Shown: one piece after another, positions 41,601 to 58,200 of the stretch | How the letters are laid out: every line of letters begins with the position of its first letter | Position numbering within the stretch: the stretch's first letter is position 1 | Origin: Branchiostoma floridae | Lineage: Eukaryota; Chordata; Leptocardii; Amphioxiformes; Branchiostomatidae | DNA length: 64,000 bases | Direction: 5' to 3' | Assembly: GCF_000003815.2 (NCBI RefSeq) | Contig: NC_049989.1 | Coordinates: 13,936,706 to 14,000,705, forward strand | The notes under the pieces: model-generated | Databases searched by the model: none | What the model was told of the DNA's origin: nothing | What the model saw: only the letters and a program-made list of their open reading frames with translations | Translations under genes and position numbers: made by a program

Positions 41601-44600
41601 GGAAAACAAGTGTGATCTGGCAATAGAACATTGAAACCTCATTATTTGAACAGAAATTAGTAATTTTTTTAAAAATATGCCCAAAAACCCGTTGCCATGG
41701 CAACACGAATAATTGCAAATTCATAGCTTTATCGTTGATTTTTTGCCAACAATACTTCAGAAAAAGTCAATAAGTTTCATAGTCCTAGTACATGTCGTTC
41801 GACAGTTACACGACGTCGAAGTTGGGGCGGGCATTTTGCCCCCCCCCCCCCCCCCCGTCTAGATAGGGTTAATGTATGACCAGCAACGAATCTACCAATG
41901 ACTGGAAAAGTCAGTCAACCTCAACTACATAACTGCTAGCTTCTAGATGACCTGATTAAGGCATAGTACTGAAACTGTCACATATGGATTTATATTTATT
42001 AACCATCTCTGGTGTCACATGGAGTAGAAATCGTCACCAACTCAGTTGTCTCGAGTAACGGTAGTTTCCTCAAAACGTTTCGTCCATCAGAACAGTTCAC
42101 CATCTCTACCACACCATCTCTGTTATCGAAGCAAACCTTTCTCCCCAACACCCTCCAGCTCAGGGCGTCATTAATGACGTCAAACAACATAGATTCTCTG
42201 ATCGGTGAGCAGGCTGTCGCGACAACTGCGTTGTTGGGAAGAAGTTCGAGACACTGCGAAGTTTCTCCGTTTCTTATAGTTCCCTCTGCAGTGTGCAGCC
42301 AGTGGTGTCGAGGATTCTGCGCTAAACACGGGCCTATCTGGGGTACACGTGAGGCGCTGTTCGCATACATACACGAGCAGGTCACACGTGGAGTCCATTC
42401 GAAGAGGAAATAAGCTGGAAATAAGAACAAAGATTTGCAATAAGAAGAATGGACATTTTAAAAGTTGCATTGCTTCCAGTACATTCGTACAGGGGCTGAA
42501 AGAGAATTTATGAAAAAAAGGTTATTTTCTTCATTTAGTAAGGAGAAGGTGTGATGGATCATTATACGAGCGAGTTAAGAAAGAAATGTTGTCAATATGA
42601 TGAGAAATGTAACAGTTTTCTATATACTAACTTTCAAAATGCCTCTCAAAATACGAGACGCTTGAATCCACCACCAGTCGTTCCAGTCCATCCTTAGGAG
42701 CCACCCATTCAAACATCTCGCAGTGCCTTATACCAGCCTCGTACTGAAACGACTGGCAGAAAAATGTTTGTTTTTCCAAACACCTGATGGCGCAGTCGGC
42801 AAGAGACAAATTAGACGCTTCTGTGAGTACCGGCATGCTTGACCTCCTGTCGTAGTGTTGTCGGAATCTGGCGAGTGCTGGTATCAATTCAAAGTCTGAA
42901 ACGTAAATGTCTGTAAGTACAGAGGACATTTTGCTCCAATACATAACATGTTCTTTCTTATAATCAAGCTCTTATTTCTGTATCTACACTAGCAACAAGT
43001 AAACAACCAATTGACTCTTTGACTCCACTGTAGATGCCATAGAACAACTAAGTACATCGTGGCACGACCGCGTCTTAATTGAAAAACATATCGACAAAGA
43101 CCCCAAAACCTACAAGTGAACTGGTTTACTAAAAGAACATTATAATTTATCTGTCACGTATGGATGATGGACAGCCGCAAAGCAACAAGAATCTCTGTGA
43201 ACTGGAAGCGAAAAGGGCCACGACCTTTTGGAAATTAAAGACTATGTGTAAAAGCTCAGTGCTAAAGAAACCAGGGTTTAGGTACCAGGTCTTAAAATGT
43301 AATGGGTGTGCAAACAAATACTAATTAGGGATATGGGTTCAATCTCTTATCCACGTTTTTGTTCCAAAGAAACGCCCTAACCTTCAGGATAAGCTGTAAT
43401 GAACTGAGCCTCAATGAAGCCGCTAGTAGAGGCTGTATACGTGGTGAGGACAGTCATCTTCACAGAGTCTGTTTTGCTCGTGTCGAACAGAAACTCGTCG
43501 TAGTAAACTTGGGACACGTCGTACAGGTCGCTTCCTTCACGCTGACTGAGTTCAACCTGTGTTTCGTACATCCAGAGAGTGTCAGCAACATGTGAAATCG
43601 TTTCAACTGTCAATGCCATATGATCAACAAATTCCTCTCAAAGATACAGATAAAAAAAGTAGCGCACAACATTCATCATCACTTTTAGCTATTAGTTAAG
43701 AACCAACGTTATCCGTAATCATCCCGCATACTGGACAGCATTATGTCAAATGAGTTAGGCGTAGGACGAAAACCCGCACAAATATCCCAGCGTTAAAGCA
43801 CACGAAAGCTATGAATGAAGTCTGTAGGCTGGGGAACTGATAGGGGGGGTGTACTATTGGAGACGAGAATCGTACTAGACAAGCGGCCAGGCGTGTCACG
43901 AAATGAGGCAAGGGAGAAACTCTAATTTATATTTTTAAAGGGTCTAAGGTAAGATTAAGAACTCACGTCTTCATAGGACCCATCATCAAACGTCAGCCTG
44001 ATTGTCCTGATTTGACCTGTGACCCATGTAGACTGTGCGATCTTAGCCCGGTTGATGAAGTAGTACCCATCAAACTTCAGCTGAACCCACGAGCCAACGC
44101 CCTGCGAACTCAGCCAGCCGAGCTGCCCTGGTCTCGGCGTCAGCTGACCGTCGATGATGCCGCCACAGGTAGCGACGCTTTCTGATGCGTCCACGCACTG
44201 GCCACCGCTGGACAGGGCAGCAACGTTTATTCCCCCAATATTGGCTGTAGAAGAAAGGTAATTTGGAGGTCAAGTTGATAAATAATGATTTTTCCAATAA
44301 CTTAACATATGTATACTAAGCTACCCATAGTTTCTTTCAGACATCGACCATATTTAGATGCAAATCGCGTAAATTAGAAAATAACTGCATGATTTTTACT
44401 ATTCCAGTGTTTGTTACAATAAAAAAAATGGCTTATGCAACATAGAGATACTATCAGATACCAATTATGAAAACAAGGGGTTGATTTGCATCACACATTA
44501 GTAAGTAGTTTCAAAATGTGGCAGTTTGAAATCACCGTCTTGCGATTTGATATCCCTAAACACCCCGTTTTCACAAACAACGGATAAAGGTTATCCCGAG

Positions 44601-47600
44601 AATAAAGGTAAAAACTTGCGTTACCTTCGTCTGAGACGGGATAAACCTCGAGTTCGCTGAACTCCAGCCGCCGCAGCTCTCCCAGCCGGGTCAGACGGAT
44701 GCCCACATACCGACCCCGCATGCCTCCGCACGACATGGTCACCTTCGACTGGTTGGCGGCGATGCTGTGGTCCTGCCCGCATTGGGGGTTGGCTGACACG
44801 TTCTGCCCGTTATCGCCGATGTGAATGAAGAAGGGGTTGAGGTCGACGGAGACTGGTTTGACAACAGTCACCCTGTCGATGGCCCACTGTCTGTCTAAGT
44901 CCACATACCACCAATGGTCCTCTGAAGGGAAATGTGCGACATTGGATAAGTGCACACTTGGATAAGTGCAAACTTACACGGGGCTCCAACACATATCAGA
45001 ACACATGAGCATGTTGTGAACACTACAAATACCGCTTTTAATGTTATATAGCTTTACATCACCGTAGACGTTACTACATTTATTCAACCTGCATATTTAA
45101 CACGTAATTCTGAAACGGAACTAACACAATCGACTGAAAGCTTTCGGTTGGCGGGCCAGCACTGTATTCAACGAAAGAGGCTCCACCTATACGTGCGCAC
45201 TTTGTAACACGTGACGTGAATTAAACACGGTGACGTACACCGATGCGTGACGTATTTTTGTAGGTTGGTCGTGACGTGTGGCATCTATTGATTTAAAAAC
45301 ACTTCACGTACTTTGTGTCACATATGATATGAATTAAAAGTTGGACGGGAGGAACCCATACAAAGTCCGCTAGGTGTCGCTCGTTCATGGCCAAGACAAG
45401 TGAAATCCTACTAAATTTGCAGTCACTCTTCTTCTTCGTGTCATCACTAATCTTGTAGTCACTAATCATTTACTTAGTTATCGATAGAAGGAAGTTACAC
45501 ATACTTAGGAAATAGTCACATACATAGTCGAACTAAAGTGTGACGTGTTCGCAGTAGGTCGGACGTCACACATTTTGCCTCCCATGTGACGTGAATTTTC
45601 CAAACACCTCATGTAAACAGCACCCTTATTTTTGACACAAATTTATTGCCATACTAGGTTATTGATAGAAGGACGTCACTCTTACTTAGGAAGTGACGTG
45701 TTCGTAATAAATCGGACGTCACGTCGATGTCGAAACAAGGCAGTCGTGATACACTTAAGTTTGTCATGTGTGTTGACTTTATGTCACACATGACGTGAGT
45801 TAAGCAAAAAAAGGCACATGTTGACTCCGTACTTTTGTCGTGACTTAATAAGCAAAAAAAAACGTGTTTTGTCTCCGTACGTTTTCAAAACTTGGCGTGA
45901 GTTAAGCAAAAAAGGATTTTGCCTCCGTACACACCTGGGCTAATCACCCATTCTTCGTAAACGTGTACAATTGATGTCGCACAAGAATATTAGCGTAGCA
46001 AATTATTAAACCATGCTTTAACGTTGACTTTGGTGGTTTAATGTCACCAGCAGATGCTGGATTTATTGCCAAAATTTACTTACGTTACCGCTTGACTTAC
46101 GTTACCACTACCCTATGCGATATCTAACATGCAGCATTTGATAGGGTAATGAGGTAGGATTGAAAGTCAGAGAGCATACCAAAAATAAAGGTCAGGTAAC
46201 ATCTCTGAGGTCCAGTTTGACATGATAGCCATAGTTCTAGTACCGTGCTCACCTTGTTATGGGCGTTAACAGGCAAAATGTTTTTCCACAGATAGACATC
46301 TGCTATTTAGGAATTGCGTAATAATTTCCTTGCAAGGATCAATCATAAAGCTTGTTAAGTGTCATTGAACCATGATCAAACTCACAAGGGCAAAAATTCA
46401 GTCAAATCTCACTTCTTTCCTCGAAGAATCTGACATTTAGCATTGGTAACGTAAGTAACCATCGGCGTGAGATGAGCTATATTTATGAAAACCTAGCAAT
46501 ATTTGTGACTCCGAAATGTGTTTTCCAACGGATAACATGATGATATAGTCAACACAATAGGTTTTATGTCGATTTTTGCACAGTTTCTTTGTCAAGTCTT
46601 CATCACACGGTAACGTAAGTAAACGTCAAGGTTATGGAGTTATCAAACTTCAAAGATGTCATGGTACATTGAGCCCACTACCTAAGACTATATTTCCATA
46701 ACTGCTGTACACATTTTAGTGGAAATGCACCTTGAATTTTATCCTCTATGTAGACCAAGGTGGAGATACAGAGGACATGTAGGGAAAATAGGAAGGTGGA
46801 TGGCGATGGGTATATGAATCAAGAAGTCGCTCGCGTTATAGAATACTATACACCGGTGGGTTCAGGGAGTAAGAGAGCTTTAAAGACGATAAGGCCAGAG
46901 GAGGAGAAGGGAAACGGGGGGGGGATAGAAAGCCAAACGTTACGGTTAAAGGTTTAGTTCAAATTAGGCTTTAAGAACAAAGGCGGACACTGCAATAAAA
47001 TAAAGCGGATGCAATGTGAGTTAGAATAGAGACAAATAAAAACTATGTATTAGCTTACGTGGTACAATAAAGACATAGACAGTCTGCCCAGCACCTCTCA
47101 CACACATGAATTTATTTGTGCAGTGGTTATATCTTTAATGTTAGAGATGTTTGACTTACGTTACCAAGGCATTGACTTACGTTACCATACTTCACTGGCG
47201 TCTGTAGGCAAAGTGCATACAGTTTCATGCCGACTGCCCTCAATGTTGTATTCTACAGTTCTTTGTCCTTCCTCCGGGGAAGTGTGAAGTGAATGCTGCC
47301 AGTTTTGTGTTTTCACCAGAAAGTGCGCTGATGTGTGCTTAATTTTTTCCAAATTAATCCAACTCATTAGGAACAAATGTTGCTAATTTTTGTCAAAAAG
47401 TAAACAGAAAGATGAAATGTTACCCATTTCAGACACTGCTTGGATACAAATCAGAAAAAAAACGTTTGTATCCCTATGTTCTTCATGTAGTAAACGTCTT
47501 CTTTGTGTAAACGTCCTTTTTTTATATCACTGAAATAAAACTGAAACATCCACATATAAAAGCCAATATCTCAAAATGGGAACGTTCAAGAACATTCTAA

Positions 47601-49102
47601 AACTTGTCAATGAAACTTAACAGCTATGGGAACAAGTTAAGACTGTTAAGTAATCTTCATGAACAACTTTCATTTTTTACCATTTCTAACCCCCAATTGC
47701 ACACGTTTACGAAGAATGGGTGTAATACCGTTGGCTGTTCTGACGCAGGTCACGTGCCTCATGTAGCATACTGACCTCTGACCTCCACAACATCTCTTGG
47801 CTTTCTTGGTTTTGACTTTTGAACGTTTTGGGACTTGAATGATGGGCATTGATTTTGTTTTGACTCTTTGGTTTTCATGTGATCTACTTTATGTTGTCCA
47901 CTGGTGTTTTTACTGAACATGTTCTGTAATGCTTACATGTATGGTGGGCCCATTAGAAATTCACGCAGCATGTGATATATAACGTTACGTGAAACCGACC
48001 CGCTACAAACACGTCAGTTTCACATATGTCACAGACAATGAACTCACCTTTTTTACATGCATCCCGCACCGCCGCAACCTGTTCTTTAGTCATGGCAAAG
48101 TCGTACAGCTGCAGACAGGCGACACGACCCGCGAAGTACCGAGGGTCTCCGTCTCTCACCCCCACCCGGACAGCGTACTGACTTGCGAGTTCGGCAACCG
48201 GAATGTTTGTTTCACGGACCAGCTCGCCGTTGCTCCAGAGGGCTGCCATCCCCGTGGCACTGTCGTAGGTTGCACCCACATAGTTCCAGGCGTTCTGCTG
48301 CAGCGCGTCCGCAATGATGTAAGGTGAAGAATGATATCTGCCTACCAGCCTACAGTAGACATGGATTAGATCATTCACTTCAAAAGAAATCGACCTAAAT
48401 ATAAAAAAAGTAGAAGAAAGGCAGTAAAAGAGGCAGCAAGGGTAAGTATGTTAATGAACATGATTATAAACATGAATGGATTCTTAAGGATCTCACCGCA
48501 TGAAAAGCAGTCGTGAAGACAACAGCCAAAAGTGTAATGCCCAGTTGTTGTTCCCCACGTAGTCGAAGATTGGTCCCTCCACTCCGGTAGGATAGATGTG
48601 CAACAGTATGGTGAAGGAGTAGCGCACATCCAACCTGCCATTGTTGGGAATCTCGATGTAGGAATTACGAGTTCCAGAAAACAGGAAAGCTCCTTCATCG
48701 TCTCCGTACGGACCTGGGACTAGCTGAGTTCCTGTGGCGGTCCCGTCATTTCCGTTTCCGGTGATGTCTGATGTTCCGTGCCGTGCGTTCAGAGGCCACA
48801 AACCAACTGCTGCAGCTGCAGAAAACAACATGGAAATTAAACCAACGATAAAACTACAAGCGACGCACTTCTGAGGCCCACGTACATTACATCATGTCTA
48901 TAAGGCGCCTGTGTAAATGCATGTGCAACCATAGAGGACTCAGTTGCCATTTTCAAAATAAGTAATCGGACACAAAAATGGGCAGTGTCAATGCTCGTTT
49001 AAGCCAGTTAGTTGAGTCGGCGACGCAATTTTCCGTCTCATTTTTTTATAGCATGACAAGCGCCCTTTTTTTACACCTTTATAATTTCCGTGTCAAAATA
49101 AC

Positions 49103-49217: not shown

Positions 49218-52200
49218 TAGACAGACAGACAGAGACAGAGAGACAGAGGGAGAGCTCACAGAAGAAACAAGAGCAAACAGCTATGGGGCATACACACTGC
49301 ACGATAAACATGTAAACTTAATGTAGTAAAAAGAAACCTACCAGCGGCAGTGAATACTTGGACTTCGCACATGGCGAGTATTCGGACGGACCCAGGAGCA
49401 TGGACGCCCACATAGCGCCCCCGCATCCCCTGACACGGGACGGAAATGGACGGCTGGTTGAGGGCGATCTGATGATCACCTCCACACCTAGGGTTCGTGC
49501 TGACCTGGTCGGAATCCCCGATGTGGATGTTAAAGGGGTTGAGTCGTTCAGCGCAACAGTCCTGACGGTTAAAGATGACCACCCTGTAGATATTGAAGAC
49601 AAAGCATGCGTTTACTGTTAAATGTAGTTTCAGGGAATTTCAATGTTGATGTCATTGGTGTCTTTTATCCTTTAATTTTTTCATATTTAACTCTTATATT
49701 GCTAACGATAATACTTTGTGTTATGTAAAGCCCCAAAGCGCGTACGATTTCTTGCGATGAAGTATTCCGCATATCGTACGATGAGCGCAGTAAATCGCAG
49801 CAAAATCGTAAGCAAAATAAGCCATTGCAACGCATCGGATGATGTTCAAAATTTTTCCAGCGTCGTACGATTTTTCACTTGTGTCTCTTCTGAATAGCCG
49901 CATGACCGCTTTTGTGCTTCTTTATCCAACCAAATGTGGACGTAGCTGTTGAATACCTTTCTATAATATCTTTAACTGTAAAAAAAGACCATGAAAACAT
50001 ATATTTCCGACTCATAGAGCCTGCCTTTCTGTTCGAGTTGTCCCCATGGTTATTACAATTATGGTAAACTGACCCGAGGCCGACGAGAGCTGAGATTTGA
50101 TCTAATTATGAACTCACGTGCATGTAGCGATCAAACACTTGTCTGCATCACCTGTGCGTGATACTAAATCTTGCTCGTGTAAAACATTGCCTTGAAGGCA
50201 GGCTCCTCTACGGGCGCGCTGTTCTCTGGTTGCTACTGTGGCAGTTGCGACTGATGTAGTTTCCCTTTTCGTCAACATCGACAATATCATGGAAAACTAA
50301 AACCATCACGACATGCCAAAAGTTTATCATTCTTTAACGTCATTATGAGAAAAAATGACCGCAATAAAGTCTGCTATGGAGGCAATAAAATTGTACGACG
50401 ATGGATAAACTTTGAACATGTTCAAAATCCATTTCAGGTCTATTTTTCGTCATACGGTACTCCCCGATTCACTATGATTAACTGCGATTGACACAGGCAC
50501 GCTCTTATGACCTCATCGTACGATGCACTACGCGCTTTGTGACCACAGCTTTATAAATTTAAACTATTGCTTCCGATTCTCCCCCGACTTACGACGCACT
50601 GCGCTCATACTGCGCATCGCAAGGAATCGTACGCGCTTTGTGAGCGGGGCATAACCTCGTACATGGAGTTGGGAAGATGAATGCCAATGGTCAGTTACTC
50701 TTGACCCTGTGTGCCGAAAACAACCTAACTATTACGAACACTTTGTACAGACAAGCAGACAAGTATAAAACCACCTGGATGCACCCCAGATCAAAGCAGT
50801 GGCATATGCTGGACTATGTCATATGCCGCAGGCGTGACATCACTCAGTGACTTTAAAACCACTCGTGCCATGAGAGGAGCCGAGTGTTGGACAGATCACC
50901 GCTTGGTTAGATCGATGCTTAAAATACACATTGCCCCAACACATCTTAAAAAGTCTGCGCCCACCAGATCATTCTACAATGTGGAGCAGCTAAAATGCCA
51001 TACGCGAGAAATTCGCACATAGCCTCGATACAAAGCTGCATTCCCATGGACCACTTTCTGGAAGCACCACACAACAGTGGGACCAGTTTAAAAAAAGTGG
51101 TGAAGGAGACAGCTCAGTGTACACTTGGTCCTAAGAGGCGGCCTCACCAGGATTGGTTCGATGACAACGACGAAGCCATCTTACAACTGCTGGATGAAAA
51201 TCGGAAGGCTTTTATAGCATGGCAAAACGACTTGTCCTCTCCCTCCAAAAGGCACCGCTTCAAGGAGCTCCAAAGACAAGCCCGAGCTACACTCCGCCGC
51301 ATTCAGGACGAGTGGTGGGTGTCGAAGGCTGCAGATATCCAACACTACTCCGACACCAGGAACAGCAAGAAGTTCTTCGGTTCCATTAAGACAGTGTTTG
51401 GACCACCAAAGCCCAGCACCGCTCCACTTAGGTCAGCTGATGGCACCCTGCTGAAGGAACAAAGTGCTATCAACAAGAGATGGCAGGAACATTTTAGTTC
51501 CTTACTCAACAGACCATCCACAGTGAGTGCGGAAGTTCTGGAAAGAATTCCTCAAAGACCTACCATTAATGCTCTTGACCTCTTCCCCACACTACAGGAG
51601 GTCAACGAGGCTATCAAACAGACAAGTGCTGGTAAGGCTCCCGGAAAGGACAGTATCCCTGCTGAAGTATTCAAAGCTATAGGACCCACAGCCCTTAGTA
51701 GCTTTCACACCCTTCTCATCAACATATGGAAGGAGGAAGACATGCCTCAGGACTTCAGAGATGCAACAATTGTTCCACTTTACAAGAACAAAGGCAGTAA
51801 ATCTGAATGTGGAAACTACCGAGGCATTTCTCTTTTGTCCATTGCTGGAAAACTGCTAGCACGCATCATACTTAACCGGCTGATCTCCACCGTCACAGAG
51901 AATAACCTCCCGGAGGCACAGTGTGGTTTTCGTCCAGGCCGTAGCACAGTGGACATGATATTTGCAGTGCGCCAGGTCCAAGAAAAGTGCAAGGAGCAAA
52001 ACCTGGACCTATATGCAGTTTTCATTGACTTAACGAAAGCTTTCGATACTGTCAGTAGGGAGGCACTCTGGACAATACTTGAAAAGTATGGATGCCCCAA
52101 AAAGTTTGTCAACCTGATTCGCCTATTTCACGACCAGATGACAGGCATGGTGCTGTGTGGGGGAGAATCATCTGAAACATTTGAAATTTCCAATGGTGTC

Positions 52201-55200
52201 AAACAGGGGTGCGTATTAGCACCAATTCTCTTCAACCTGTTCTTCACTTGTGTCCTCGACCAGGCATTGAAGGATGCAAGAGATGGTGTGCACCTGAAGT
52301 ACAGAACAGATGGATCCCTTTTTGACCTGCGCCGACTGAAGGCAAAAACAAAGACAGTGGTGACAACTATCCTAGAGGCCCTCCTTGCTGACGACTGTGC
52401 CCTGATGGCCCACAAGGAGCCAGTTCTCCAGCTGTTCGTCAACAAATTTGCAGAGGCAGCAAACCTCTTTGGTCTCACCGTCAGTCTTGATAAAACAGAA
52501 GTGCTTCTTCAGCCCGCACCACTGTCTGTGGCCCGTTGTCCGTGTATCTCAATTGAGGGTACCAAACTGAAGACCGTGGATGGATTCACTTACCTCGGTA
52601 GTGTTATGTCCAATGACGGCTCCCTTGACAAAGAGATCAACAACAGGATCTGTAAAGCCAGTCAAGCACTCGGCAGACTGAAAACACGAGTGCTTAACGA
52701 GCATAACATAAAGTTATCCACGAAGTTAAAAGTCTACCAAGCAGTTGTCATCCCCAGCCTGCTGTACGGCTGTGACACTTGGACTTTGTACAGGTGACAC
52801 ATCAAGCAGCTAGAGCGCTTTCACATGCGCAGTCTGCGCTCAATCCTTGGTGTTCGCTGGCAGGATAAGGTCTCCAACCTTGAGATCCTAGACAGAGCAA
52901 AGACCACAAGTATAGAAGCAGTAATTCTGAAAGCTCAACTTCGATGGACAGGACATGTCATTCGAATGGATGACTCTAGGATCCCAAAACAGCTCCTCTA
53001 TGGTGAGCTTTGCCAAGGAAAAAGGAAGAGGGGTAGACCGCAAAAGCGCTTTAAGGACAATATAAAAACAAACATTAAGTATGCTGACATAGCCCCGAAC
53101 CAGCTTGAGACACAGGCACAAGACCGTAGTGACTGGCGCTCGCTAACGAAGCTTGCTCAGGAAAACTTCGAAAGGGCCCGCCGAACAAACATTGAAGAGG
53201 CCAGACGCAGACGTAAAGCAGCGGCAGCAGCAGCAATGACCAGGCAGCAGAGCCAGCCCCAGTTCAGCTGTGAGCAATGCGGACGACCCTGCCGGTCCAG
53301 AATCGGACTCCTGAGCCACCTGCGAGTGCACAACAGATGAGAAAATGCACGTAGAAGTCATCATCGACTACGATGGACAACCAAGATAACCTCGTAGCAC
53401 TGTTGCTTAGTTAGTAGTTGTTGCCATACGCCGTATCCTGTAATTGTCCAGAAATTCATTCAGACTAAAATGGTTGGGCCATGTTCTGCGGATGTCGGAT
53501 GACCGTATCCCCAAAGTTGCTCTACATTGGGCCCCTGAGGAGAAGAGAAAACAGTGACGTCCTGAAACTACATGGAGACGCACTGTGGCCAAAGACCTAG
53601 CGGCCATTGGGATCCCCTGGGATGCTGCTCAGCCCCTAGCACAGAACAGACCCCAGTGGAGGAAACTTATCACAGCCTTATGGGGGCACACACCAGTTTA
53701 TTTGGGGTTTCAATTGGAGGCGGCATACCCTAAAGTCTAGCGACCAGCTCTACCAGGGAATTATCCTGAAGCAAAATAACTGTATATCTGGTGAAAGCAT
53801 ATTCCTTTAGCTACAAGTCAAACTAAGTTTCGATCCTTCAACTTCTCTGATTTTAAAAATTAGAGGGAAAAAACATTATTTTCATGTAAAAAATAATGCA
53901 AAAAATCGGGCATTTTGGCATTGAAAGAAAAACATGAAGATGATTTTTCCGGCAAACACGACTGATACTGTCAGAAAGAGGAAAACCTAACGAGTAATCC
54001 AGCTAATTATAAAAAAAATTCTAGTACTACAGTTTTTTTAATCATCCACGGCGCGCGGCATTACAACTAGGCTTAACACAGCGCTTCAGAGGTTAATCTA
54101 GGTCACGAGCCTAATCACATTCAGGCGTAGGAATATCCCGGAAGTAAGACGCGGACCAAAACACAATTTGCACCGAAAACACACCATTTCCTACGCTTTT
54201 CAGCCATGTAACCGTTTAATGTCATTTCGCAGGAAATAATGAGAAATGTCAACTCAAACATGGACCCTCGGAAGCCTTTCGTCACTTTTTTCTCGCGCAC
54301 TAGCTCGGACCCCTGTCGCGGAAGAACTGGTGTGTGCACCGTTAATATATGCAAATTATGATTATTATTGTCCATAACTTTAAAACGTTATACTATATAG
54401 TCATGCCAAGTTTGAGTTGTCTGCGACTTTTCTTTCTCGAGTAACAGGTGGTTGAAAGTTGCGGTGTCGGAAGGCTGATTTTGCGCCTTCAGGCCAGTAT
54501 ACCATTCAATGCGCATAATAGCAATTACGTCACAATGAGCTTGTCCTATGGAAGAGGTTTTAGGCCATTAATACGTGCTAAATGAAGAGGCATGGTCGTG
54601 AAAAGGAAAGGCAAGGGGCCGCTCTTGCGATGGAGCACACTTTCCCTCTATTTCTAACTGGAATGAACAGTAGAAACCACCTAGAACGTAGTTGAGTTCG
54701 TGACGTCACAATGCCGGCCACTAGCCTATGTTTGAAAGTAAGAACGCTGCAGTTTTAAGTTCCGCACTTCAACGAGAAGTGCTTGAAATGTTATTTTTTG
54801 GTCATATCTGGTAGAGGATAGACCTGGCTTTCCCGTCCAAGCGTTTCCGTAGGCCGGGCTTCTTTCATTTCGTAGAAAAATGAAGTCATATGTTGTATCT
54901 TTGGTTAAGATGGAGGCCTATTCTGCATATCCTGCCGGTATGAACTTAAAAACGGGCATCTGCTAAGATAAGGCTTTGCAGTTTGGTGTCGGTCTCGGTG
55001 TAATAAACAAGCCTTGGGATGTATCTTCGGATTGGTGCAACTTACTTGTGTTAATGTCGAGAACTAGCGCCACGCCGAACTTAACATTTGATTTGCCAGG
55101 AAAGTGCAAAAAATCGGGCATTTTGGCATTGAAAGAAAAACATGAAGATGATTTTTCCGGCAAACACGACTGATACTGTCAGAAAGAGGAAAACCTAACG

Positions 55201-58200
55201 AGTAATCCAGCTAATTATAAAAAAAATTCTAGTACTACAGTTTTTTTAATCATCCACGGCGCGCGGCATTACAACTAGGCTTAACACAGCGCTTCAGAGG
55301 TTAATCTAGGTCACGAGCCTAATCACATTCAGGCGTAGGAATATCCCGGAAGTAAGACGCGGACCAAAACACAATTTGCACCGAAAACACACCATTTCCT
55401 ACGCTTTTCAGCCATGTAACCGTTTAATGTCATTTCGCAGGAAATAATGAGAAATGTCAACTCAAACATGGACCCTCGGAAGCCTTTCGTCACTTTTTTC
55501 TCGCGCACTAGCTCGGACCCCTGTCGCGGAAGAACTGGTGTGTGCACCGTTATGTCCCACATGGGATGGAGAAGGTAAGCAAGTTAGCATTCATTCATTA
55601 CCTATACATGTCTATATACGTACCTATCCACCACGTACGATCGACCGAGATCGACCCACCAGGTTGGGTTAGCCTCTCCCGGGTTAACTCTAGTAGCTGT
55701 ACAGGAACCAGCGTAGTGGTTGGTGTCGGTGTTCCCGTCAACGGCCTTTCCGGGAGGCTGAGCGGTGCTTGTTTGGAACGCTGGCTTCCCCAGGGCGACA
55801 TTGACACCTACCACAGGCGAGAGGACTGTCATCATTTTTACATCAATGCACCGTTGAAGTAATCTCCAAGCAGATCCTACGGCGCCATAAGATACATGTA
55901 GTACCAAAGCTGACCAAGAGGTATAGCCAGCCAAGGGAGTCAGACGAGGTCGCATACACACTCCTATGCCGGCTTCACTCCTCTGTCAGCTTTTGATACT
56001 ATCTATAAATGCTACCGTAGGATCTGCTTGGAGATTACGTTGAAGTTTTGTATCTGCATTCAAATAGTCGGTATAATCACCCTTCGGCGTAACACACTGG
56101 CTTAAGTTGAAGAAGCTCTGCGACAATGAATTTACTAAAACGTGAAGATTCAATACGTAAATTGTAAGTAGTCAAAAAGACTGGACAAATGACTAAACAC
56201 AAAAAGTGAGGTATACCAAAAACTACATTTTCATTTTTGTTCTTTCAAATCGCCTTTAACGTTGGAATTTACTTTCAAATTGGAATTCTATGACATTAGT
56301 ATCCATTTCGGCAATTTAAATTTACGGCATATAAATGCCCATTTTACAGCCAATTTGTACCATTTACAAGGTGGTTATTAAAAACTTTTCTTCTTTTATT
56401 TCTGTAAACGGACGAAAAAATTGATACGCGCGAGGATGTAATCCATATTATCAAATCAACATGGCCTAGGTATATGCGATCCCGTGATCGGGAAAAGTCG
56501 GACAGTCACGTGTAGGTCAGTTGCGACTTCAGAAAGATTTGTCCTGTCAAAGTTGTCCTTTTTTAACAGGTTTTCTGTGTTTTACAGTTAGTTAACAGAT
56601 TTAATCTCCTCCAGAGCAGAACTTGTGTGCAGTTTTTGGGTCCAAACGTTGTTTTGTACACACCTGGACTAATAACGTCAGCTGTTCTGACGCAAGTGCC
56701 GTTGCCCTCGTCGCAACCCTCCGTTGTTCTGACGCCGTCGTTGCCGTGCCAGGAGTGACTGTTCGCGTCCAGTGTTGTCGACTGACGTGTCCTCTTCCCG
56801 AGGGCGATGTTTGTGCCAGCTGAGGCGGAACAAAAAGGAACTGTGAATGCACCATGCTAGGGGGCACTCAATAATCTTAAGTAACGGCCCTGGCGTACCG
56901 ACCTGAGGTGCATTCTTCTCGCTACGTTAGGCCGGGTTCACACGTGCGTATATATTCTAGTCCGTATGAGGTCCGTATGGAATGCTTAGCCTCTACCAGG
57001 CTCAACAAGTTCCAGGAAAAATGATAGAAATTGGACAAATGTAGCCAGAGGACATGCCAGAGGAGTTAGCATACTGCTCGGATAGCTAACGTTAACTCGT
57101 CTGGCGTAGTATATGTCGATATTTGTCCAATATCTACTATTTTTCTAGTGACCTGTGCACACTTCCATTGTGTGATACGGACCCTCGTACAGACTTGAAA
57201 ACCGGCCAGCCATAAGCTTATCATATACCCCCTTCTGTTGTTTGAAATAAATCATACTCCTCTGTCAGTTAACTTGTTTGGCAAGTTTCTATCTATATTT
57301 GTCCAATTTCTACCTACTATTTTTACAACCACTGGTAGGAACTAAGACTTCCATACGGATCACTAACGGACAAAAATATATACACAACTGTAAACCCACC
57401 TAAAGTGATCTTGAGACAGTATCCAAACTAAACAGTGTCCAACCGCCACCGGGGGCTTAGTTTAGGCACAGTTTAGACCTTGGATACTGCCATTGCCCCC
57501 AATAGATCTGCTTGGGTATTACACAAACGGTCTGCCTGGCATGAGAGGGTAAAGATATACTAGATTTTAAATCTTCAAATTGGCACTAGCTTTTAAAGCT
57601 TCAAATCAAAGGTAAAATCTCCTGACCTGTTTTACGGAAGCAAGCCGGATACCCGGGGTACGGATCCCAGCAGCACCCGTGGAGCTCGCATTCGTGAGGT
57701 GTGACGTCATCCCAGGCACACGGCTGTCTGGAGGCCAGGGGGGTGGAGCAGCCCAGTCCTTCAATGAAAAATAGAAAAAATCATGACGACCCAGCAACAA
57801 CGATGGAGTTATTCTAGTACGACGTTTGAAACAATATCAGCCCTTGCATTTTAAAAAACACCAGGGACCTAAACTTACAGCTCTTACTCTCTGCTGCAAC
57901 TTAAAGGTATCGGGGACTCACAAATCACGTCCTAAGTACTTTAAGCTCCCCTTCGACAAATTTCACACAAATGCTGACATATAGAGAAATGTTTCAGACT
58001 GTCTGAGTGATTATAGAAATGTATTAGAAGCTGCATGGGGCTTAGGTCCTAATTGGAAAAACGGGCCCGGCCGGGGAGTTCACGTTGACGTTTTTTTTTT
58101 TTTGTTTTTTTTTTTCATTTTCGGACGTGATCTCTACGTGGTTCCGTAGGACACCTTACGGCTCCAGGGGTATTTTTGTGCCCGGCCGGGCCCCGGGTTG

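What the first reader, a model, noticed from the sequence alone, without database searches (positions are those of the whole stretch)
45928..47760. Transposon insertion split a lectin exon and left a half fucolectin domain in the gene
Precise removal of the 1778-bp element and one TAAT rebuilds, base for base in length, the donor end of a fucolectin N-half exon homologous to the intact one at 56664. The partner C-half exon (44625-44921) is still open and can be spliced in phase to the LamG exon. The domain loss and the probable exon-skipping rescue can thus be read directly from the DNA.
Basis: partly seen in the sequence, partly recalled or inferred. Interest (0 to 1): 0.75.

Follow-up and report, generated by a model that had tools for sequence, protein, structure and literature searches.

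The report
Lectin exon scrap hit by transposon
A mobile DNA element really did land in a piece of lectin exon, but the piece was only a short leftover, and the matching lectin half is still present further up the same gene, in a family whose members carry different whole domains inserted in the middle of that one lectin domain.

Summary
The observation largely holds; the story built on it mostly does not. A 1778-bp DNA transposon (45945-47722, TIRs 28/29, TSD TAAT) sits in sequence homologous to the donor end of the fucolectin N-half exon at 56664 (42 bp, no gaps, 37 identical, E 1.8e-9). But only 34 of the exon's 156 bases are there: at 47750/47751 the homology stops at a dispersed, LINE-like repeat, and no acceptor or 5' part of the exon follows. 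Leaving out the element does not give back an exon. Nor is the C-half exon an orphan: the genome holds 7 close C-halves and 7 N-halves, six of each in one cluster on contig C2 and one of each here. One paralog has N directly before C; in the other five, and here, other domains lie between them (FTP, C-type lectin, a second F5/8, or LamG). So the likely partner of 44625-44921 is the intact exon at 56664-56819, and the separation does not need the transposon. The fragment is best read as a scar where a LamG segment was joined in, hit by the element before or after. No RNA data were available.

The parts
45945..47722 (.). Non-autonomous DNA transposon, 1778 bp, 29-bp TIRs (28/29)
   Evidence: other copies carry about 600 bp more after base 117; no coding similarity looked for inside the window copy beyond the frames
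45941..45944 (.). TAAT, left target duplication
47723..47726 (.). TAAT, right target duplication
45927..45944 (-). N-exon remnant, 3' piece: 10 exonic bases, GT donor and first intron bases
47727..47750 (-). N-exon remnant, 5' piece: 24 exonic bases
47751..47963 (+). Dispersed repeat (LINE-like 3' tail by my reading), truncated at 47751
   Evidence: Pfam gave nothing for 2 of 2 fragments tried
48048..48349 (-). LamG exon 2 (phase-1 donor); ends read by eye
48497..48809 (-). LamG exon 1 (phase-1 acceptor); ends read by eye, inner end approximate
48916..48923 (.). Junction where homology to paralog g3 stops and homology to the C19/C9 LamG genes starts
49346..49589 (-). FTP cargo domain, second exon (B); ends approximate
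55615..55808 (-). FTP cargo domain, first exon (Np); ends approximate
56664..56819 (-). Intact fucolectin N-half exon (phase 1-1), likely partner of the C-half
44625..44921 (-). Fucolectin C-half exon A (phase 1-1)
57624..57764 (-). Trefoil exon upstream of N
43955..44258 (-). DUF7402-like exon downstream of A; ends approximate
45203..45724 (.). Dispersed CGTGACGTG-rich repeat in the intron before A

Best explanation
This is a host lectin gene on the minus strand with the layout trefoil - N-half - FTP domain - LamG - C-half - DUF7402. The fucolectin domain is encoded in two phase-1 exons (N 56664-56819, A 44625-44921), and whole domains have been added in the intron between them. The LamG segment (about 48923 to 47751, with the repeat in its intron) matches LamG genes on C19 and C9 and was joined in place of what is a C-type lectin module in paralog g3. 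At its 3' edge a 42-base copy of the N-exon donor end remains: a scar (duplicated target, filler, or the stump of a second N exon). The transposon inserted into that scrap, before or after the joining. It now lies in an intron and need not change the protein. Shown: element, TSD, 42-bp homology, repeat junction, paralog layouts, reading phases. Inferred: splicing, that N and A fold together across the cargo, and the order of events.
For: 7 N and 7 A exons genome-wide, one pair per gene, six in one C2 cluster. g2 has N and A 313 bp apart with nothing between; joined they match FBP32 (3cqo) as one domain, residues 2-146, E 4.8e-16, and score 39-40 bits against PF22633 where A alone scores 33.6. 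g3 was read in full: trefoil, N, FTP, C-type lectin, A, DUF, same order as here. Switch from g3-like to C19/C9-like sequence at 48916-48923. Exon homology stops at the repeat edge. Both N and A look constrained: mean dN 0.048 and dS 0.144 over 15 pairs for N, 0.050 and 0.166 over 10 pairs for A (means taken by hand; pairs are not independent).
Against: No transcript shows that N and A lie in one mRNA here; they are 12 kb apart with a reverse-transcriptase frame between. Discontinuous folding is untested.
Confidence: 0.75

Rival explanations
1. One reading: a complete N exon next to A was split by the transposon, A was left as a half domain, and skipping rescued the gene; the 5' part was lost later.
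For: Clean TSD inside exon-like sequence and no gap in the alignment. The fragment keeps an open frame of 11 residues and a GT donor. Its downstream intron starts with a unit also found before A in g1.
Against: An intact N-half is in the same gene and N and A are 7 to 7. g1, g3, g4, g5 and g6 show no second N-half in the stretches read before A. The exon's other edge is a repeat junction that the element does not explain.
Confidence: 0.12
2. The 42-base fragment is junction filler: a short copy of the N donor end made when the LamG segment was joined by end repair with small homologies.
For: Both edges show short shared words (GGCAC/GGCACG with the repeat, GTAC with the intron unit). Five paralogs lack it in the stretches read.
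Against: The g2 look-alike (E 0.13) and the 15-base match of the fragment's intron with the g2 N intron (21 of 2000 shuffles as good; 6 other introns 340 or more of 2000) hint at a native N-A junction instead.
Confidence: 0.35
3. The fragment match is chance or a general repeat.
For: The genome is full of F5/8 domains.
Against: E 1.8e-9 and 3.6e-10; among loci compared it matches only the N exons of this family.
Confidence: 0.02

Closest known systems
Phase 1-1 exon shuffling in lancelets (PMC4284660, passages seen)
   Same: Symmetrical phase-1 domain exons in lectin-type genes exchanged between paralogs, with transposable elements at the junctions.
   Different: Here the accepting intron lies inside a domain, between its N and C halves, and carries different cargo in different paralogs.
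Fucolectin / F5/8 type C domain (FBP32, 3cqo; PF22633)
   Same: N plus A match one whole domain.
   Different: In six of seven genes the two halves are separated by other domains.
Lancelet APEC proteins with a fucolectin and two C-type lectin domains (PMC12373286, passages seen)
   Same: Same kinds of carbohydrate-binding domains combined in one lancelet protein.
   Different: Those passages describe a complete fucolectin followed by C-type lectins; no APEC domain was sought or found here.
TIR DNA transposons with 4-bp target duplications (Sola, Chapaev)
   Same: Terminal inverted repeats and 4-bp duplications.
   Different: The 579-aa frame of the 7.7-kb relative has no Pfam match at E 1 and no convincing NCBIfam match; superfamily unassigned.

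Membership tests
TIR DNA transposon | Terminal inverted repeats flanked by a fixed-length target duplication | tested here: met
   28/29 TIR; 4-bp flanks agree in the window copy and in 7 of 7 others with both ends read
TIR DNA transposon | A relative coding for a transposase | tested here: inconclusive
   C8 relative has a 579-aa frame; D/D/E-like motifs are my reading only; Pfam 0 families, NCBIfam one weak unrelated match, E 0.6
Chapaev | Transposase of the DUF1280 kind (PF06918, per PMC3985635 passage) | tested here: not met
   no Pfam match at E 1 for the C8 frame
Sola | 4-bp target duplication; AT-rich AWWT in the Sola2 examples of PMC3627910 (passages) | tested here: inconclusive
   length fits; words such as ACCT and TTCA do not fit AWWT; transposase not compared
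Fucolectin / F5/8 type C | One continuous domain match | tested here: met
   g2 N+A joined: 3cqo 4.8e-16 over residues 2-146; the typed joint carried one residue (G) that the g2 splice would not give
Gene disruption by a transposon | An otherwise complete exon interrupted only by the element | tested here: not met
   34 of 156 exonic bases, other edge is a repeat
Phase 1-1 shuffled module | Cargo exons bounded by phase-1 introns | tested here: met
   read by eye for the window FTP and LamG modules and the g3 C-type lectin exon; not checked in every paralog
Functional split domain | N and A in one transcript and one fold | not testable with these tools
   no RNA data; a joined product could not be folded here

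The most novel reading that the evidence does not exclude
The phase-1 intron inside the fucolectin domain is a re-used docking site: in a young lectin family of one lancelet-like genome, FTP, C-type lectin, F5/8 and LamG modules have been exchanged there, giving nested (discontinuous) lectin domains, or isoforms that skip the cargo and rejoin N to A.
Probability: 0.35. Interest if true: 0.65.

Novelty: new variant of a known kind. Interest (0 to 1): 0.42.

Why it matters
Whether transposable elements drive the reported fast domain shuffling of lancelets is disputed: PMC4284660 (passages) proposes it, and PMC4967905 (abstract, outline and one section seen) blames gene-prediction errors. Here module exchange can be read in DNA without any gene model: seven paralogs share the same two half-domain exons with different cargo between them, and one cargo junction is placed within 8 bases. 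It also warns that a clean transposon insertion in exon-like sequence need not mean a gene was damaged by it.

Tried and rejected
Rejected: that the element alone broke the exon (other edge is a repeat); that A is orphaned (intact N upstream, 7 to 7); that the fragment is chance. Considered and left open: native second N exon versus filler; date of the element. The window copy lies K2P 0.091 from the majority of six other copies, which themselves lie 0.054-0.070 from it, so it is not very recent, but this does not order it against the repeat junction. Trying to name the transposon superfamily led nowhere. The joined-flank search found only the two halves themselves, and was too insensitive to show the 88% N exon. 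A paper search on nested domain insertion and one on amphioxus fucolectin listed nothing that, by title and opening of abstract, describes this layout; I did not read those papers beyond the ones named.

Full report
Setting. The window is G000:C11:13936706-14000705 of a 513-Mb genome in 431 contigs. That it is an amphioxus, probably Branchiostoma floridae, is my inference from size, chromosome-like contigs and gene content; no call names it.

The element. Between two TAAT words lie 1778 bp whose ends are inverted repeats, 28 of 29. A genome search gave 42 matching places from 30 scored candidates, a lower bound. Six relatives with both ends read, and a 7.7-kb relative on C8, have agreeing 4-bp flanks, all different words. 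The others carry about 600 bp more after base 117, so the window copy is shortened inside. The C8 relative holds a 579-aa frame without a Pfam match and with only a weak, unrelated NCBIfam match (E 0.6). The superfamily is unassigned. The window copy is K2P 0.121-0.143 from each of six others and 0.091 from their majority.

The exon-like flanks. Leaving out the element and one TAAT, 42 bases match the donor end of the exon at 56664 without gaps, 37 identical. Against seven N exons of the family the best matches are the window exon and g3 (88%), then g6 86% over 36 bases, g4 83%, g1 and g2 81% (g5's own donor end is displaced). So the homology is real. But it covers 34 exonic bases of 156. On the far side, from 47751, the sequence belongs to a dispersed repeat: the 338 bases up to the LamG donor gave 40 scored matches; six dispersed copies match down to 47749-47751, and several of them (L012, L014, L016), and the C19 copy, continue beyond it where the window does not. 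By my reading it is the 3' tail of a LINE (reverse-transcriptase-like words in L013 and L016), but Pfam found nothing for the 2 fragments tried. On the near side, beyond 45927, lies a unit also present before A in g1 (53 bp, 91%) and then a dispersed repeat (82 matching places).

The partner. The C-half exon A has six relatives at 87-93% identity, the next best at 52%. The intact N exon has six relatives at 88-92% and nothing else at E 1. All twelve lie on C2 between 31.66 and 32.22 Mb, and they pair off as six genes. Between N and A: g2 nothing, 313 bp; g1 an FTP domain (Np and B; 2.5 kb between N and A not read); g3 FTP and C-type lectin, read in full; g5 a C-type lectin, read in full; g4 a B-like exon and the end of an F5/8 domain (rest not read); g6 Np, two B-like exons and an F5/8 domain (rest not read). 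The window gene has FTP and LamG. N and A of g2 joined match FBP32 over their whole length (E 4.8e-16), so they are the two halves of one domain.

The LamG segment. From 47756 to 48923 the window matches a gene on C19 (89.7% over 660 bp, then 79.7% over 558 bp) and from 47794 to 48915 a gene on C9 (81%). Upstream of 48916 it matches g3 instead. In C19 the next exon after LamG is an F5/8 domain, not a fucolectin half. So in the window gene a C19-like LamG segment stands where g3 has a C-type lectin. The 42-base fragment lies at the other end of that segment.

Reading. The simplest account is that modules are exchanged in the intron between N and A, and that the fragment is a trace of the joining at the 3' edge of the LamG segment. 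Against filler and for an old second N exon: the 15-base likeness between the fragment's intron and the g2 N intron (21 of 2000 shuffles as good; the other six introns tested 340 to 1756 of 2000), and a weak second donor-like stretch in the g2 intron (profile E 0.13). I leave this open. Either way the fragment had no acceptor in its present setting, and the element within it need not affect the protein.

Constraint. Over 10 pairs of five A exons mean dN is 0.050 and mean dS 0.166; over 15 pairs of six N exons 0.048 and 0.144 (numbers, means by hand; g4 and g6 A exons and the g5 N exon were left out). The window A against the four others has dN/dS 0.31-0.53, among the higher values but below 1. 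So both halves look kept, weakly.

Literature. PMC4284660 (passages) reports very frequent phase 1-1 exon shuffling in lancelets and suggests transposable elements take part. PMC4967905 (abstract, outline, section 12) ascribes much of the apparent novelty to gene-prediction errors. PMC12373286 (passages) describes lancelet proteins combining a fucolectin with C-type lectins. Two searches aimed at this layout listed no paper that by title and opening lines describes it; the library lacks most subscription papers.

Noticed in passing
L071 from about 1638 (paralog g5): The donor end of the g5 N exon is displaced by roughly 215 bp of inserted sequence, and a GT at the edge (AACAG|GTAACA) could act as an in-phase donor: a parallel case at the same exon end.
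   Followed up: partly
G000:C9:1586638-1607394 (L034, L033): A copy of the element keeps agreeing AGTA flanks although about 18.4 kb lies between its two parts.
   Followed up: no
window 50950-52794 (+): 615-aa open frame with a reverse transcriptase domain (RVT_1, 5.6e-35) inside the intron of the FTP cargo domain.
   Followed up: partly
window 54121-54387 and 55329-55583 (-): Two frames share a stretch of about 70 identical residues: a direct duplication in the same intron.
   Followed up: no
L067, N-A intron of g2: A weak second N-donor-like stretch (17 of 20 bases; profile E 0.13; 1 of 500 shuffles as good).
   Followed up: partly
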